Below are positions 1-60,337 of a DNA stretch of 64,000 nt, in pieces. The position numbers were made by a program, and so were the translations under genes. The stretch is from Flavobacterium pisciphilum. Its GTDB lineage: Bacteria; Bacteroidota; Bacteroidia; Flavobacteriales; Flavobacteriaceae. Below the pieces are notes generated by a model. That model saw only the letters and a list, made by a program, of their open reading frames with translations, was not told the DNA's origin and searched no databases. Location: NCBI RefSeq assembly GCF_020905345.1, contig NZ_JAJJMO010000001.1:1922001-1986000 (forward strand), read 5' to 3'. Each line of letters begins with the position of its first letter. Position 1 is the first letter of the stretch.

Positions 1-57
1 CTTGAGGTAAGTATTACCCGTTTGTGAGTAAAAAATATTCTTATGAAACGCTTATTC

Positions 58-133
58 TAGCCCAGATAGCAACGGCATCCTCTTGTGGTGGGGTTCACCA
101 CAAGAGATACAGTGCAGAGCTGGATTGTGCTCC
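58..133 (+). repeat. Flavobacterium-type structured intergenic element, copy 1
   Basis: A 76-base element whose left arm (58-81) matches the left arm of a second copy at 49732-49811 in 21 of 24 positions. It is followed by a perfect 11-base inverted repeat (80-90 with 96-106, loop GGGTT) and a conserved right arm beginning GATA at about 105. The hairpin arms differ completely from copy 2 but still pair, which suggests selection on RNA or DNA structure. It sits just beyond the end of the ABC1 kinase gene, which is on the other strand. No U-tract follows, so it is not an ordinary terminator. It may belong to a known Flavobacterium RNA motif such as Flavo-1, but I cannot verify that. Confidence 0.6.
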
Positions 134-1437
134 TAATATTTTTGATAATTATTTACTTGAATTTTTGCTTTTAAATCGAACATTAGATTATATAACCCGA
201 AGAAAGTACGGTTCATGTATATAAAATGTTTCGAGCCACGGTTGCCATTCATTTTTTTGAGATTGGTGTCTTTAGAAAAACGTTCTCCTAATTGGGCAAT
301 ATTATCAAAAAACTCTTCATCTGAAAAATCGAATGTATCGGATTGGAATGGTTTTGTGAATAATGATAATAAATCATGAAACATTCCTGTAAAATAGGTT
401 ATCTCTTCTTTAGTATCATCTGTTCGTAGAATTTCTAATTCGAATAGTTTCTCATTAAAAAGCTTTTCATCAGTTATCACTTCCTTATTGATTAACTCAA
501 AATAAGGGATATAAAAATCATTTGGAATTTGTTTCATGCATCCAAAATCTAAAGCTACCAACTGATTTTTATCGTTTACCAAGAAATTTCCAGGATGAGG
601 ATCTGCATGTACCTTACGCAAAACATGAATTTGATACATATAAAAATCCCAAAGTGCCTGACCAATTGTATCTGATTCTTCTTGGCTTCTACTCTTGGCA
701 GTATATTCTGAAAGATGAATTCCTGTCATCCAATCCATTGTGATGATTTTCTCTGAAGAAAACTCTGGATAGTAATTTGGGAACTCTAAATTTTCTATCT
801 TTTTACAAGCATTTACTACTTCCTGACTCTGTTCTAATTCTAATAAATAGTTAGTTTCTTCTATTAACTTATCCTCTACTTCCTTAAAATATTTATCTGA
901 ATCTTTTCCCTGTAGATTAAACATTCGTATCGCCATTGGTTTTACCAAAGCCAAATCTGATGAAATACTATTGGCAACTCCTGGATATTGAATTTTAACT
1001 GCTAACTGCTTGCCCTCTTTTACAGCTAAATGCACCTGACCAATACTTGCTGCATTTACTGAATTAGGGTTAAACTCATCAAAAATTTCATAAGGTGTTT
1101 TACCAAAATTAGTTTTAAATGTTTTTAAGACTAATGGTGCTGAAAGTGGCGGAACTGAAAATTGTGACAAGGAAAATTTTTCAACATAGGCTTGTGGCAA
1201 GAAATTCTTATCCATGCTTAACATCTGTGCTACTTTAAGCGCACTTCCTTTTAAGCTTTTAAGCCCATCATAAATATCTTCGGCATTATTTTCGTTTAAT
1301 TTATCACGAGTTACATCAGGGTTTACAATTTTTTCACCGTAATATTTCAAATAATTCACTCCAACTTTTGCTCCAGTTTGAACCAATTTGCTCGCCCTTT
1401 CTATTTTGGAAGTTGGGATATAGTCGATAGTTTTCAT
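133..1437 (-). CDS. ABC1/AarF/UbiB-family atypical protein kinase-like protein
   Basis: This is a 434-residue member of the ABC1 (UbiB/ADCK) family of atypical kinases, which in other bacteria support isoprenoid-quinone or lipid metabolism. Visible family signatures are AASIGQVH (residues 129-136, the Ala-rich loop replacing a glycine loop), the ATP-binding lysine in AVKIQ (146-150), the catalytic HADPHPGNF (277-285) and the metal-binding DFG (297-299). The N-terminal KxGQ motif is KVAQ (68-71), so the usual glycine is alanine. There are no obvious C-terminal membrane helices as in UbiB. Its start overlaps the stop of the upstream TetR-like gene by four bases (ATGA), so the two are translationally coupled. 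The substrate is unknown. Confidence 0.87.
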   Translation of the reverse strand: MKTIDYIPTSKIERASKLVQTGAKVGVNYLKYYGEKIVNPDVTRDKLNENNAEDIYDGLKSLKGSALKVAQMLSMDKNFLPQAYVEKFSLSQFSVPPLSAPLVLKTFKTNFGKTPYEIFDEFNPNSVNAASIGQVHLAVKEGKQLAVKIQYPGVANSISSDLALVKPMAIRMFNLQGKDSDKYFKEVEDKLIEETNYLLELEQSQEVVNACKKIENLEFPNYYPEFSSEKIITMDWMTGIHLSEYTAKSRSQEESDTIGQALWDFYMYQIHVLRKVHADPHPGNFLVNDKNQLVALDFGCMKQIPNDFYIPYFELINKEVITDEKLFNEKLFELEILRTDDTKEEITYFTGMFHDLLSLFTKPFQSDTFDFSDEEFFDNIAQLGERFSKDTNLKKMNGNRGSKHFIYMNRTFFGLYNLMFDLKAKIQVNNYQKY

Positions 1438-22530: not shown

Positions 22531-22562
22531 TTGATTTTTAAGTATTTTTAACTTTATATTTG
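22531..22562 (+). promoter_or_regulatory. Promoter TTG-N21-TATATTTG for the riboswitch transcript
   Basis: TTG at 22531-22533 and TATATTTG at 22555-22562. Transcription should begin near 22569, exactly where the cobalamin riboswitch begins. Confidence 0.7.
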
Positions 22563-22569
22563 CATTCAC

Positions 22570-22770
22570 ATTAAGGTTGTGTTATTTTTTGAGACACATT
22601 AAAAGGGAATCAAGTAAATGAAGATTGAAAATATCAACATTCAAAAATCTTGAGCTGTACCCGCAACTGTAAACTTAGTTCCGTAAGGAATGTTTGTTGT
22701 TAACTACAAAACCACTGTTTTAGAACGGGAAGGAAAACAACAAGACGTAAGCCAGGAGACCTGCCTTTGT
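22570..22770 (+). ncRNA. Cobalamin riboswitch
   Basis: The leader carries the conserved core GCTGTACCCGCAACTGTAA (about 22653-22671) and the B12 box AGCCAGGAGACCTGCC (22750-22765), preceded by AAAAGGGAATCAAG (about 22599-22612). These are the diagnostic parts of the adenosyl/methylcobalamin aptamer. A hairpin formed by AACTCT and AGAGTT (about 22783-22803) stands just before the btuB ATG at 22811 and could hide the translation start. High B12 is expected to shut off the downstream receptor and beta-propeller. Confidence 0.96.
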
Positions 22771-22810
22771 TAACTAATATCGAACTCTCGGGAAGAAGAG
22801 TTTAGAAATT

Positions 22811-24664
22811 ATGACATTACAAAAGTTCTACATCTGTTTTTCGCTCTTAGTTTGCCAATTCATTTCGGCACAAAATGATTCTATAACAAAACTAAAAGAA
22901 GTTATCGTTTCGGATGCTAATCTCAAAAAATATTCTGATTCACAATCGGTATTAAAACTCAATGACTCCATTATTAATAAAAATGAAGCATTACTTACTG
23001 ATTTGTTAAACTTCAATTCTACTATATACTTTAAAGAATACGGTCGTGGAATGCTTTCAACAGTTGCGTTTAGAGGAACAACAGCCTCTCAAACAGCAGT
23101 TATTTGGAACGGTATTAATATCAATTCCCAGATGAATGGAAGTACCGATTTCAATACCATTTCTTCCAATGATTATAATTCGATAAGTGTAAAAGCTGGT
23201 GGTGGAAGTGTTATTTACGGAAGTGGTGCTGTTGGAGGAACTGTACATTTAAACAATGACTTAATCTTCAACGATCAATTTAGCAATAGTTTAAGACTTG
23301 ATTACGGTAGTTTTAATACTGCTGGAATCAACTACAAAACAAACATTTCGAACAAAAAGTGGAGTGCACAAATTGGTTTTTCTAAAAACAGTTCAACGAA
23401 TGATTATCCTTATGTAAATACATACAATTGGAAAGGCGAACAACGCTATAATACTAATGGACAATATGATGTGATTGGCGTAAATGCCAATTTTGGATAT
23501 AAAATAAACAAAAACAACACCATAAAATTATACAGTCAAACTTCAAATACTGACAGAAACACATCATTGATTTCAGAATCAGAAACCAAGTCAAAATACA
23601 TCAATGGTTTTAGCCGCAACTTAATAGAATACAATGGTGACTTTAATAAATTAACTGCCAATTTTAAGACTGCATATATTCTAGAAAATTATCAATATTT
23701 TGCCGACATAGACCGTGATTATTATAGTTATGGAAAAACACAAAACTTAATAACTAAACTTGATTTAGGATATCAAATATTAAAATCTATTCAAGTAAAT
23801 GGGGTTATAGATTATAGCAGGACCAAAGGATATGGGACTAGTTTTGGAAATAATGTTCGTGAAATAAGTTCTGTATCATTATTAGCAAAACAGCAAGTAA
23901 CAACCAAATGGCTGAATGAATTTGGTATTCGGAAAGAATTTACAAATAATTATAAGTCACCTGTATTATTTTCATTAGGTTCTTCTTATGAGTTTAGTAA
24001 ATTCTATAATCTAAAATTAAATCTATCCCGAAATTATCGAATCCCAACTTACAATGATCTCTATTGGGATGAAGGGGGAAATCCTAACTTAAAACCTGAA
24101 AGCTCTTATCAAGCTGAAATTGGAAATGTTTTTTCATATAAAAAAATAACACTTTCTCAAACTGTTTACTATATCAAAATTAAAGATTTACTACAATGGG
24201 TACCTGGAAACAAAGGAATATGGTCGCCACAAAACACCGACAAAGTAAACTCTTATGGAACAGAAACTATGCTAAGCTGGAAAAACAATTATGGTAAAAA
24301 CTATTTTAGTCTAAATGCGACATATGCTTATACTGTTTCTAAAAATGAAGAAACCAATAAACAAATATTTTTTGTCCCATTTAATAAAGCAACTGGAGCT
24401 ATAGCTTATGCCCGTGGTAAAATATCTGCCAACTATCAAATTTTATACAATGGCTTTGTATATACAAGAGCCGATAATAACCCAAAAGAGATTGTCAATG
24501 ATTATTTAATATCAAATATTGGTATCGATTATGATTTTCACTTCCTGTCTTCTTTCAAACTTGGTTTTCAAGTTCGTAATTTATTCAATGAAGAATATGA
24601 AAGCTTAGAAGACCGAATTATGCCTGGAAGAAATTTTAATATGTATTTAACCCTTAAATTTTAA
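22811..24664 (+). CDS. btuB: TonB-dependent outer-membrane cobalamin receptor (BtuB-like)
   Basis: A 617-residue receptor with a signal peptide (to about residue 20, ISAQ), a plug domain (about 45-150, with 'LLNFNSTIYFKEYGRGMLST' and VIYGSGAVGGTVHL) and a barrel ending in the C-terminal strand RNFNMYLTLKF. The TonB box region is probably LKEVIVSD near residue 28. Close to the length of E. coli BtuB, and much shorter than SusC-type receptors. The cobalamin riboswitch directly upstream makes corrinoid the most likely ligand. The next gene, a surface beta-propeller, starts four bases after its stop codon. Confidence 0.9.
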   Translation: MTLQKFYICFSLLVCQFISAQNDSITKLKEVIVSDANLKKYSDSQSVLKLNDSIINKNEALLTDLLNFNSTIYFKEYGRGMLSTVAFRGTTASQTAVIWNGININSQMNGSTDFNTISSNDYNSISVKAGGGSVIYGSGAVGGTVHLNNDLIFNDQFSNSLRLDYGSFNTAGINYKTNISNKKWSAQIGFSKNSSTNDYPYVNTYNWKGEQRYNTNGQYDVIGVNANFGYKINKNNTIKLYSQTSNTDRNTSLISESETKSKYINGFSRNLIEYNGDFNKLTANFKTAYILENYQYFADIDRDYYSYGKTQNLITKLDLGYQILKSIQVNGVIDYSRTKGYGTSFGNNVREISSVSLLAKQQVTTKWLNEFGIRKEFTNNYKSPVLFSLGSSYEFSKFYNLKLNLSRNYRIPTYNDLYWDEGGNPNLKPESSYQAEIGNVFSYKKITLSQTVYYIKIKDLLQWVPGNKGIWSPQNTDKVNSYGTETMLSWKNNYGKNYFSLNATYAYTVSKNEETNKQIFFVPFNKATGAIAYARGKISANYQILYNGFVYTRADNNPKEIVNDYLISNIGIDYDFHFLSSFKLGFQVRNLFNEEYESLEDRIMPGRNFNMYLTLKF

Positions 24665-48767: not shown

Positions 48768-49724
48768 ATGAATTTATCTATACTTATACCGCTTCTTAAC
48801 GAAGAGGAGTCACTTACGGAACTATACACATGGATCATTAAAGTGATGAAATCTAACAATTACTCATATGAAATCATTTTTGTAGATGATGGTAGTACAG
48901 ATAATTCTTGGAACATTATTGAAGGTTTTTCTAACGAAAACCCAAATGTAAAAGGCATTCGATTCATGAAGAACTTTGGTAAATCGCAAGCTTTACATGC
49001 TGGTTTTGCCAAAGCTAATGGTGATGTTATTATCACCATGGATGCCGATTTACAAGATAGTCCAGAAGAGATTCCTGGATTATTTGAAATGATTACTAAC
49101 CAGAAATTTGATTTGGTTTCGGGTTGGAAAAAGAAACGTTACGACTCTGTTGTAGCAAAAAACCTACCATCAAAATTATTCAATTGGGCTGCCAGAAAAA
49201 CTTCGGGTGTTGAATTAAATGATTTTAATTGCGGATTAAAAGCTTATAAAAATACTGTTGTTAAAAACATTGAAGTTTCCGGCGAAATGCACCGATACAT
49301 CCCTGTTTTAGCAAAAAATGCTGGTTTTAATAAAATCGGTGAAAAAGTAGTACAACATCAGGCACGTAAGTATGGCGAAACTAAATTTGGTATGGAACGT
49401 TTTATTAACGGATTCCTTGACCTTATTACAATTTGGTTCCTTTCAAGATTTGGAAAAAGACCTATGCACTTATTTGGCGCCATTGGCTCACTTATGTTCA
49501 TAATTGGTTTTTTACTGGCTGGTTATATCGGAGTATCTAAATTATACCATATGTATATGGGAATGCGCTATAACTTGGTAACGAGTAACCCTTGGTTCTT
49601 TATCGCATTAACAACTATGATATTAGGAACTCAATTATTTCTTGCTGGTTTCTTGGGCGAAATTATTTTACGCACTAAAAACAACGAGGAACGCTATAAA
49701 ATAGCCAATCAAGTTAATCTATAA
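48768..49724 (+). CDS. Family 2 glycosyltransferase (GtrB/dolichol-phosphate-sugar synthase type)
   Basis: A 318-residue GT-A enzyme. Motifs are IFVDDGSTDNS (about residues 38-48), NFGKSQALHAGF and the metal-binding DADLQDSPEEIPG (about 95-107). Two C-terminal membrane helices (about 232-256 and 267-290) anchor it to the membrane. This set is typical of polyprenyl-phosphate glycosyltransferases that load a sugar on undecaprenyl phosphate. Follows the DUF4199 gene in the same transcript. The repeat-element copy 2 begins seven bases after its stop. Confidence 0.88.
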   Translation: MNLSILIPLLNEEESLTELYTWIIKVMKSNNYSYEIIFVDDGSTDNSWNIIEGFSNENPNVKGIRFMKNFGKSQALHAGFAKANGDVIITMDADLQDSPEEIPGLFEMITNQKFDLVSGWKKKRYDSVVAKNLPSKLFNWAARKTSGVELNDFNCGLKAYKNTVVKNIEVSGEMHRYIPVLAKNAGFNKIGEKVVQHQARKYGETKFGMERFINGFLDLITIWFLSRFGKRPMHLFGAIGSLMFIIGFLLAGYIGVSKLYHMYMGMRYNLVTSNPWFFIALTTMILGTQLFLAGFLGEIILRTKNNEERYKIANQVNL

Positions 49725-49731
49725 CATAAAC

Positions 49732-49811
49732 CCTAGCCCTGATAACAGCGGCATCCTTTATGTTTTTTCTTTAAAAACATAAAGATATAGCGAATAGCAG
49801 GAGATTGCTTC
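49732..49811 (+). repeat. Flavobacterium-type structured intergenic element, copy 2
   Basis: This 80-base element matches copy 1 (58-133) in the left arm (21 of 24 positions) and keeps the right-arm wording GATA-TAGCG and AGCAGGA. The central hairpin is formed by TTTATGTTTT (49756-49765) and AAAACATAAA (49774-49783) around a six- to eight-base loop; these bases differ from copy 1 but preserve the pairing. No U-tract. It directly follows the glycosyltransferase gene. Confidence 0.62.
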
Positions 49812-49876: not shown

Positions 49877-51604
49877 ATGAATATAGCACCAAACATTTTA
49901 ACTGCTGTAAACGAATGGCTGACGCCAGCATTTGACAATGAAACACAAGAGGCGATTAAAGAGATGATGACAACATCACCTAAAGATCTTGAAGAAAGTT
50001 TTTATAAAAATTTAGAATTCGGTACTGGTGGAATGCGCGGTATTATGGGTGTTGGTAGCAACCGAATCAACAAATACACACTTGGAAGAAATACACAGGG
50101 ACTTTCTGATTACATGCATAAGGTTTTCCCTAACCAAACTCTAAAAGTAGCAATCGCTTACGATTGCCGTCACAATAGCAACACTCTTGCTAAAATCGTT
50201 GCTGATGTTTTCTCTGCAAATGGAATTCATGTTTATTTATTTTCAGACATGCGTCCGACTCCAGAATTATCTTTTGCTCTTAAATATTTAGGTTGCCAAT
50301 GTGGTATTGTACTTACTGCATCACACAATCCACCTGAATATAATGGATATAAAGTATATTGGGAAGACGGCGGGCAAATTGTTCCTCCTCAAGATGCAGA
50401 AATTATTGCCATGATTGAGAGCTTAGATTATGCTAAAATCAAATTTCATGCTAATGAGAAATTAATTGAATATATAGACAAAGAAATCGACAACGCTTTC
50501 ATCAAGTCGTCTATTGAAAACGCTAGTTTTAATACTCCGGCTAAAGCTAAAGAAGATTTACAAATCGTTTTTACATCTTTACATGGAACTTCTATAAAAT
50601 CAATCCCTCCTACTTTATCACAAGCGGGTTACACTAGTGTACATATTGTACCTGAGCAAGCTGTTCCAAATGGTGATTTCCCTACTGTAAAATCCCCTAA
50701 TCCAGAAGAGCCTGAAGCACTAACAATGGCATTGGTATTGGCTGATAAAACAAATTCAGATATTGTTGTTGGTACTGACCCTGACTGTGATCGTCTAGGA
50801 GTTGCTGTTCGTAATAATGAAGGGAAAATGATTTTGCTAAACGGAAATCAAACCATGATATTAATGACTTCCTTCTTATTACAAGAATGGAAAAAAGCTG
50901 GCAAAATTAACGGAAAACAATTTATAGGATCAACTATTGTTTCGACTCCTATGATGATGGAACTTGCAACAAGCTATGATGTTGAATGCAAAATAGGCTT
51001 GACAGGATTTAAATGGATTGCCAAAATGATTAAAGATTTCCCTGAACTTGAATTTATAGGTGGTGGAGAAGAAAGTTTTGGTTTTATGGTTGGTGATGCT
51101 GTTCGTGATAAAGATGCCGTTGCTGCTACTTTATTAATTTGCGAAATGGCTGCTCAAGCAAAAGCAAACGGAAGTTCTGTTTACAAAGAACTCTTGAAGC
51201 TTTATGTTGAACACGGATTTTACAAAGAACATTTGGTTGCCTTAACAAAAAAAGGAATAGAAGGATTAGAAGAAATTAATCAAATGATGATTAATCTACG
51301 TGAAAACCCTGTAAAAGAAATAGACGGTCAAAGAGTAATAATGGTAGAAGATTACCAATCTTCTACAGCATTAAACTTATTGAGTGGTGAAGTATCTGAA
51401 ATGACTATCCCTAAATCAAATGTGTTAATCTATTATACTGAAGATGGCTCTAAAATTTGCGCTAGACCAAGTGGAACAGAGCCAAAAATCAAATTTTACA
51501 TTAGCGTAAATACTGAGTTGCATGCTGTAGAAGATTTTGATGCAACTGAAGCAATTTTAGATAAAAAGATAAAAAACATTATCACTGCAATGCAATTGAA
51601 TTAA
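49877..51604 (+). CDS. Phospho-sugar mutase (phosphoglucomutase/phosphomannomutase)
   Basis: A 575-residue enzyme that moves phosphate between the 1 and 6 positions of hexose. The phosphoserine loop is TASHNPPEYNGYKVYW (about residue 146-161), the metal-binding loop is GTDPDCDRLGVA, the sugar-binding loop is GGGEESFGFMVGD, and the phosphate loop is RPSGTEPKIKFY. The size fits the large phosphoglucomutase/phosphomannomutase group. It can supply glucose-1-P or mannose-1-P for the glycan and storage pathways. It is 55 bases upstream of the exporter gene. Confidence 0.93.
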   Translation: MNIAPNILTAVNEWLTPAFDNETQEAIKEMMTTSPKDLEESFYKNLEFGTGGMRGIMGVGSNRINKYTLGRNTQGLSDYMHKVFPNQTLKVAIAYDCRHNSNTLAKIVADVFSANGIHVYLFSDMRPTPELSFALKYLGCQCGIVLTASHNPPEYNGYKVYWEDGGQIVPPQDAEIIAMIESLDYAKIKFHANEKLIEYIDKEIDNAFIKSSIENASFNTPAKAKEDLQIVFTSLHGTSIKSIPPTLSQAGYTSVHIVPEQAVPNGDFPTVKSPNPEEPEALTMALVLADKTNSDIVVGTDPDCDRLGVAVRNNEGKMILLNGNQTMILMTSFLLQEWKKAGKINGKQFIGSTIVSTPMMMELATSYDVECKIGLTGFKWIAKMIKDFPELEFIGGGEESFGFMVGDAVRDKDAVAATLLICEMAAQAKANGSSVYKELLKLYVEHGFYKEHLVALTKKGIEGLEEINQMMINLRENPVKEIDGQRVIMVEDYQSSTALNLLSGEVSEMTIPKSNVLIYYTEDGSKICARPSGTEPKIKFYISVNTELHAVEDFDATEAILDKKIKNIITAMQLN

Positions 51605-60175: not shown

Positions 60176-60337
60176 GCCTACATTAGTTCATATTTGGTAA
60201 ACTCAACACTAACAATTTAGAATGAGCAAATCATCACTACTAAAGCATGCCACGCTTCGGCGAGGAAACTTGAACAGTGAGTTAGCTCAAAACTTGTCTT
60301 TTCGAGTTTATACAAGCAACCTAATGTAGGCTTTTTT
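60176..60337 (+). ncRNA. ssrS: Probable 6S RNA (6S-Flavo-like)
   Basis: A perfect 11-base closing stem GCCTACATTAG (60176-60186) with CTAATGTAGGC (60321-60331) encloses about 134 bases, followed by T6. The inside is weakly paired near the stem (the expected open bubble) and has a GC-rich apical hairpin around CGCTTCGGCG (60253-60262). 6S RNA mimics an open promoter and binds RNA polymerase. The gene order zapA / 6S also fits. I see no open frame. The assignment was not checked against a covariance model. Confidence 0.72.

What the first reader, a model, noticed from the sequence alone, without database searches (positions are those of the whole stretch)
58..133. Two copies of an element with changed but still pairing hairpin
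Copies at 58-133 and 49732-49811 share conserved outer arms (21 of 24 positions identical in the left arm), yet their central stems have quite different bases that still pair perfectly. That is the signature of selection on structure, not of simple copying. Both lie near gene ends, neither has a U-tract, and neither ends in the usual terminator form. They may be a regulatory or small RNA, or a DNA-level element. Possible membership of the known Flavo-1 RNA family is open.
Basis: partly seen in the sequence, partly recalled or inferred. Interest (0 to 1): 0.72.

Follow-up and report, generated by a model that had tools for sequence, protein, structure and literature searches.

The report
Flavo-1 hairpin repeats, two copies
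The two elements are ordinary members of a known, functionally unexplained family of hairpin sequences scattered through flavobacterial genomes, and they behave more like a folded DNA repeat whose insides are swapped between sites than like a small-RNA gene.

Summary
The genome has 70 matches, 58 over the cut-off. Structural selection is well supported: in 37 equal-length copies, 12 of 23 pairs show two-sided changes, beyond every shuffled or slid control. G-U pairs outnumber A-C mismatches (23 v 5 and 30 v 5 in two bias-checked sets), so one strand appears to fold as a single strand. 'Not simple copying' is only half right. Between two close relatives, 2 of 17 aligned shared sites show double compensatory changes (one clear, one probable), while 5 of 17 show the hairpin tip or body replaced between like flanks. 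An sRNA gene, terminator or mRNA element is disfavoured: no promoter-motif enrichment, few U-tracts, all orientations to genes. No target-site duplications, Y1-transposase link or viral matches were found. Best reading: a dispersed strand-specific hairpin repeat, probably acting at the DNA level and exchanging bodies between copies. The function is unproved.

The parts
55..130 (+). Flavo-1 copy 1 (Rfam limits); the conserved 3' end GCTCCTA runs on to 135
   Evidence: 59.8 bits, GA 42
57..80 (+). left arm of copy 1, ending CGGCATCC
   Evidence: sequence; 21 of 24 identical to copy 2
80..106 (+). central stem-loop of copy 1, 11 pairs closing GGGTT
   Evidence: same hairpin
133..135 (-). TAG stop codon of ORF 133-1437 (ABC1-type kinase domain), lying in the conserved 3' end of copy 1
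49731..49808 (+). Flavo-1 copy 2 (Rfam limits); 3' end GCTTC just beyond
   Evidence: 69.4 bits, GA 42
49733..49756 (+). left arm of copy 2
49756..49784 (+). central stem-loop of copy 2, 12 pairs closing TCTTT
   Evidence: same hairpin
48768..49724 (+). family-2 glycosyltransferase gene ending 6 nt before copy 2 (context)
49877..51604 (+). phosphoglucomutase/phosphomannomutase gene after copy 2 (context)

Best explanation
Both copies are members of Rfam Flavo-1. Flavo-1 is best read as a dispersed intergenic hairpin repeat, not as a set of sRNA genes. Shown: a long bulged hairpin with covarying pairs and little-changing non-canonical internal-loop positions; a G-U over A-C excess pointing to one folded strand; every orientation to neighbouring genes; persistence at the same site across species, with decay in some; and replacement of tips or bodies at a fixed site. 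Inferred: the folded strand is recognised by a protein, more likely as single-stranded DNA (during replication, repair or recombination) than as RNA, and recombination between copies exchanges their insides. Recognition selects for the bulged core and for pairing but not for the stem's sequence. What the host or the repeat gains is not shown.
For: Family membership. Covariation: 12 of 23 pairs with two-sided change; covariation score 0.313 against at most 0.111 slid and 0.104 shuffled mean, 37 sequences. Loop positions in 40 copies not chosen by the exact pattern: A.G 40/40 (the G is fixed by my search expression), G.A 38/40, A.G 32/40, G.A 38/40, C.A 28/40. Strand: in well-formed central stems G-U 23 v A-C 5 (69 stems of G000, G006, G071) and 30 v 5 (105 stems of named loci, only the pairs the pattern does not fix); variable arm pairs 10 v 2 in the first set. 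Orientation: 69 own sites = tandem sense 16, tandem antisense 31, convergent 12, divergent 10; 94 usable of 105 copies from named genomes = 26, 35, 14, 19. Sense and antisense copies score alike (p = 0.92). Promoter motif TANNTTTG in 7 of 159 upstream stretches, 7.7 expected. Published transcriptome of F. [quoted passage not shown] Exchange. Persistence: 22 of 30 loci over cut-off at the copy-2 site, 10 of 30 at the copy-1 site.
Against: No protein partner was found. No replication-strand bias (29 leading, 35 lagging, p = 0.53), which a replication-linked ssDNA role might have given. No clean empty site or target-site duplication, so movement to new sites is unproved. Free-energy folds do not single out the + strand: for copy 1 the - strand is the more stable as RNA (-32.1 v -28.7 kcal/mol; z -3.5 v -2.2), for copy 2 they are nearly equal (-21.3 v -21.9), and as DNA both strands are alike. 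The G-U excess is weak in G006+G071 alone (7 v 4), and copies found with the Rfam model lean towards G-U. G-U tolerance and covariation are equally expected of RNA. Ordinary gene conversion between copies would explain the swaps without a dedicated machine. A modest antisense excess (66 v 42 tandem, p = 0.026) is unexplained.
Confidence: 0.45

Rival explanations
1. Flavo-1 acts as RNA: sense or antisense read-through transcripts carry the folded strand, which an RNA-binding protein or nuclease recognises (mRNA/asRNA processing, stability, or a protein sponge).
For: G-U tolerance on one strand and covariation; non-canonical loop positions of a kind often bound by proteins in RNA; antisense excess; antisense transcription is common in F. 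psychrophilum and several 5' transcribed regions coincide with Flavo-1 (PMC9723704, passage).
Against: No promoter-motif enrichment and few T-runs after the 3' end, no sense preference, equal scores in sense and antisense copies, and the same paper reports many hits outside transcribed regions.
Confidence: 0.33
2. A REP-like mobile repeat spread by a Y1 (RAYT) transposase.
For: Short imperfect palindrome, intergenic, tens of copies, patchy distribution.
Against: No Y1_Tnp match at E <= 0.001 in G000 (70 Flavo-1 matches) or G004 (101); none of 16 Y1 loci of relatives has Flavo-1 over the cut-off within about 1.5 kb; the element is about 85 nt with bulged arms.
Confidence: 0.07
3. An unusual transcription terminator or mRNA 3'-end element.
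For: Often close to stop codons; copy 2 lies 6 nt after a stop codon.
Against: T5 within 35 nt after the 3' end in 20 of 159; antisense and divergent placements common; in G183 and G004 a separate terminator-like hairpin, seen by eye, precedes the element at the copy-1 site.
Confidence: 0.05
4. A retro-copied, SINE-like element: RNA of the + strand with an A-rich 3' tail is reverse transcribed into new or existing sites.
For: A-rich 3' flank whatever the neighbouring gene; body replacement at fixed sites.
Against: No duplications, no dated new insertion; reverse transcriptases were not examined.
Confidence: 0.04

Closest known systems
Flavo-1 RNA (Rfam RF01705; Weinberg et al. 2010, PMC2864571, table passage seen)
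   Same: Sequence, structure and taxon; both copies over the gathering score.
   Different: The 2010 table marks it 'RNA y, cis-reg n' and Rfam files it as sRNA; the promoter, orientation and exchange evidence here fits a DNA-level repeat better than an sRNA gene.
REP/BIME repeats with RAYT (recalled)
   Same: Intergenic, palindromic, tens of copies.
   Different: Longer, bulged and structurally covarying; no Y1 transposase detected in this genome or beside copies.
ERIC, BOX and similar small intergenic repeats (recalled)
   Same: About 80-130 nt hairpin repeats in both orientations between genes.
   Different: Those are mostly described as MITE-like; no target duplication seen here.
Integron attC sites (recalled)
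   Same: Conserved bulged arms, variable tip, single-strand folding.
   Different: No cassette array noticed; attC core sites and integrase not tested.

Membership tests
Flavo-1 (RF01705) | Covariance-model score over the gathering threshold, full length | tested here: met
   59.8 and 69.4 bits v 42, model 1-76 of 76 for both
Flavo-1 (RF01705) | Conserved pairing with covariation | tested here: met
   (37 copies, copy 1 among them as L042)
Flavo-1 (RF01705) | Expressed as a small RNA (Rfam type 'Gene; sRNA') | not testable with these tools
   no RNA data; promoter motif not enriched
REP with RAYT | Y1 transposase in the genome or beside copies | tested here: not met
Intrinsic terminator | Hairpin followed by a U-tract, on the strand of the upstream gene | tested here: not met
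MITE | Target-site duplication at the ends | tested here: not met
   k-mers shared between flanks about as expected for k = 4 to 8, 160 copies; old duplications could have decayed
Integron attC site | R and L core sites and tyrosine integron integrase | not tested
   lead recalled only

The most novel reading that the evidence does not exclude
Flavo-1 is not a small-RNA family but a class of strand-specific hairpin repeats native to Bacteroidota. A machine other than a Y1 transposase recognises its single-stranded fold and drives replacement of element bodies at fixed chromosomal sites, so that each copy keeps the fold while its stem sequence turns over.
Probability: 0.25. Interest if true: 0.7.

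Novelty: new member of a known kind. Interest (0 to 1): 0.4.

Why it matters
Flavo-1 stands in Rfam as a presumed sRNA; my paper searches found no function for it. If it is a folded DNA repeat whose bodies are exchanged between sites, tens of 'sRNA' annotations per flavobacterial genome are misleading, and an unknown hairpin-recognising protein remains to be found. It also warns that covariation between dispersed copies can come partly from module exchange and not only from compensatory mutation.

Tried and rejected
sRNA gene with its own promoter: disfavoured by the motif count. Terminator: disfavoured. RAYT/REP: not supported. Phage carriage: an exact-pattern scan of IMG/VR found 0; the pattern is narrow. 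Replication-strand bias: none (five rrn copies left out; origin placed only roughly, near 2.85 Mb, from GC skew of sampled loci). Empty-site test in G006/G071: of 29 sites without a counterpart (21 in G006, 8 in G071) I tried 7. Site 259 was a partial deletion leaving the element's right end, 257 a decayed copy, 247 and 253 rewritten intergenic DNA; 271 and 262 gave no clear junction and 245 was unreadable (one flank found). Genes beside the element in named loci: 226 neighbours, largest cluster 4 members; among the 14 largest clusters, read by eye from the start of one protein each, none looked like a transposase. Papers: searches 'flavo-1 rna' (0), 'flavo-1' with Flavobacterium (2), RF01705, repetitive extragenic palindromic, small repeats, miniature inverted-repeat, and intergenic repeats with stem-loop; listings, plus passages of PMC2864571, PMC9723704 and PMC12306157, gave no function for Flavo-1.

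Caveats: element lists for searches come from a regular expression for the commoner (type A) form, which itself restricts several arm positions; copies of the GCGTGAGGG...CCCGACCC form and decayed copies are missing from those counts. This biased the strand count (78 v 13), so the report uses the recount. ORFs were called by a simple script. Match counts are capped at 15 per genome. In one search the pair 277/294 was scored in the wrong orientation; one search shows it nearly identical. Of 19 G006 loci with a G071 counterpart, 17 pairs were aligned; 241/252 and 288/237 were not; 255/252 has diverged flanks. In 269/264 the compensatory reading depends on which of two neighbouring bases pairs.

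Full report
Observation. Both copies are present as described, and both match Rfam Flavo-1 (RF01705) over its whole length at 59.8 and 69.4 bits, gathering score 42. Copy 1 lies between a DNA photolyase gene and the convergent gene of an ABC1-type kinase, whose TAG stop codon (133-135) is part of the element's conserved 3' end. Copy 2 lies 6 nt after a family-2 glycosyltransferase gene and before a phosphoglucomutase gene. By distance, the same end holds the stop codon of 14 of 76 antisense right-hand neighbours.

Number and range. The genome has 70 matches at E <= 0.001, 58 over the cut-off (one place is matched on both strands, so 69 places). Among 21 genomes (own plus 20 relatives), 15 have matches, 4 to 101 each. 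In a sample of 296 genomes of the phylum, 44 have a match and 36 one over the cut-off: 18 of the window's genus (itself included), 6 of other genera of its family, 5 of its order, 9 of its class and 6 beyond. Counts there are capped at 15 per genome, several genomes outside the genus reach 13-15, others have one, and filters were stricter. The pattern also occurs in Chryseobacterium, Kaistella, Halpernia, Polaribacter, Algibacter and others. An exact-pattern scan of viral contigs gave nothing.

Structure. On a nearly gapless alignment of 37 copies (A1; 6 from this genome, 5 from the orthologous copy-2 site, 26 from named genomes, chosen for equal length), a structure of 23 pairs has 95.2% standard pairs, 12 pairs with changes on both sides, 87 such cells (21.8 shuffled mean, at most 18 slid) and a covariation score of 0.313 (0.104 shuffled, at most 0.111 slid). 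In 135 copies one arm pair is G-C 51, A-T 46, T-A 25, C-G 5, with 8 unpaired. In 40 copies not taken by the exact pattern, loop positions A.G, G.A, A.G, G.A, C.A are kept in 40 (one side fixed by the search expression), 38, 32, 38 and 28. A second form has an outer GCGTG/CACGC stem (seen by eye). G-U outnumbers A-C in well-formed central stems 23 to 5 (G000, G006, G071; of this 7 to 4 in G006+G071) and 30 to 5 (named loci, unfixed pairs only). This points to the + strand as the one that folds, but not to RNA or single-stranded DNA. Copies are related, so these are counts, not independent events, and the Rfam model that found part of them tolerates G-U. Energy folding does not favour the + strand: for copy 1 the - strand is more stable as RNA (-32.1 v -28.7 kcal/mol), for copy 2 they are nearly equal, and as DNA both strands are alike.

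Context. Neighbouring genes show no consistent orientation: 16 sense, 31 antisense, 12 convergent, 10 divergent in the own genome, and 26, 35, 14, 19 in 94 usable of 105 copies of named genomes. Tandem sites pooled are 42 sense and 66 antisense (p = 0.026), and sense copies score no better than antisense ones in the own genome (p = 0.92). Upstream stretches are not enriched in TANNTTTG (recalled promoter consensus; 7 of 159, 7.7 in shuffles), and T-runs follow the 3' end within 35 nt in 20 of 159. The 3' flank is A-rich whatever the neighbour. Five copies lie roughly 600 bp upstream of five 16S genes, antisense to them, inside the repeated rrn region. In F. psychrophilum, Flavo-1 hits were reported as indistinctly sense or antisense to transcribed regions, with many outside them (PMC9723704, passage).

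Evolution at fixed sites. At the copy-2 site 22 of the 30 best-matching genus loci (of 198 genomes with a match) have Flavo-1 over the cut-off, all 22 in the same orientation to the query region, with arms kept and stems very different; of the other 8 some hold interrupted or degenerate copies and some none. At the copy-1 site 10 of the 30 best loci do. Two close relatives, mostly over 90% identical around shared sites, have 40 and 25 matches; 19 of the 40 have a counterpart among the 25. Of 17 aligned pairs, 267/254 shows a clear double compensatory change (A-T to G-C) and 269/264 a probable one. Five show replacement between flanks that stay alike: tip only in 243/246 and 278/296, body in 239/248, 276/250 and 285/237. 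For 239/248 and 243/246 the nearest relative is another copy in the same genome (0.90/0.93 and 0.91/0.83, against 0.74 and 0.76 for the site counterpart). For 285/237 paralogues also match better (0.83/0.80 v 0.59), and for 276/250 and 278/296 no clear donor was found. Stem turnover is therefore a mix of compensatory change and module exchange.

Mobility. No target-site duplication signal was found. Y1 transposase was not detected in this genome or in G004, which have 70 and 101 matches, and none of 16 Y1 loci has Flavo-1 over the cut-off beside it. The sites without the element that could be read in the close pair were deleted, decayed or rewritten, not clean empty sites.

Conclusion. The feature is real, structurally selected and a known family. 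The sRNA-gene reading is disfavoured. A strand-specific folded repeat acting at the DNA level, with exchange between copies, fits best at about 0.45; an RNA role through read-through or antisense transcription remains a serious rival at about 0.33.

Noticed in passing
window 60201-60309 (+): 6S-Flavo RNA (RF01685) at 82.9 bits, just under its gathering score of 85; probably a 6S RNA gene.
   Followed up: no
window 22557-22782 (+): Cobalamin riboswitch, 85 bits, just before the ORF at 22811-24664.
   Followed up: no
L001, L008, L012, L025, L026: Five rrn operons each carry a Flavo-1 copy roughly 600 bp upstream of 16S, antisense to the rRNA; L063 holds a further copy of the rrn region with only a weak Flavo-1 match nearby (32.6 bits).
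   Followed up: partly
L032, L062, L065, L309 and others: Other small palindromes (TCCCGATAGCTATCGGGA type) are inserted in loops or arms of Flavo-1 copies.
   Followed up: no
L310-L333 (copy-1 site in relatives): Intergenic DNA lacking Flavo-1 is often filled with other repeats (TTTCAGGTTTCAAGTTT; TGTCATCCTGACGAAGGAAGGATC), suggesting fast intergenic turnover.
   Followed up: no
L053 (G000 C1:1121546-1121625): One copy is a near-perfect palindrome that matches the Flavo-1 model on both strands.
   Followed up: no
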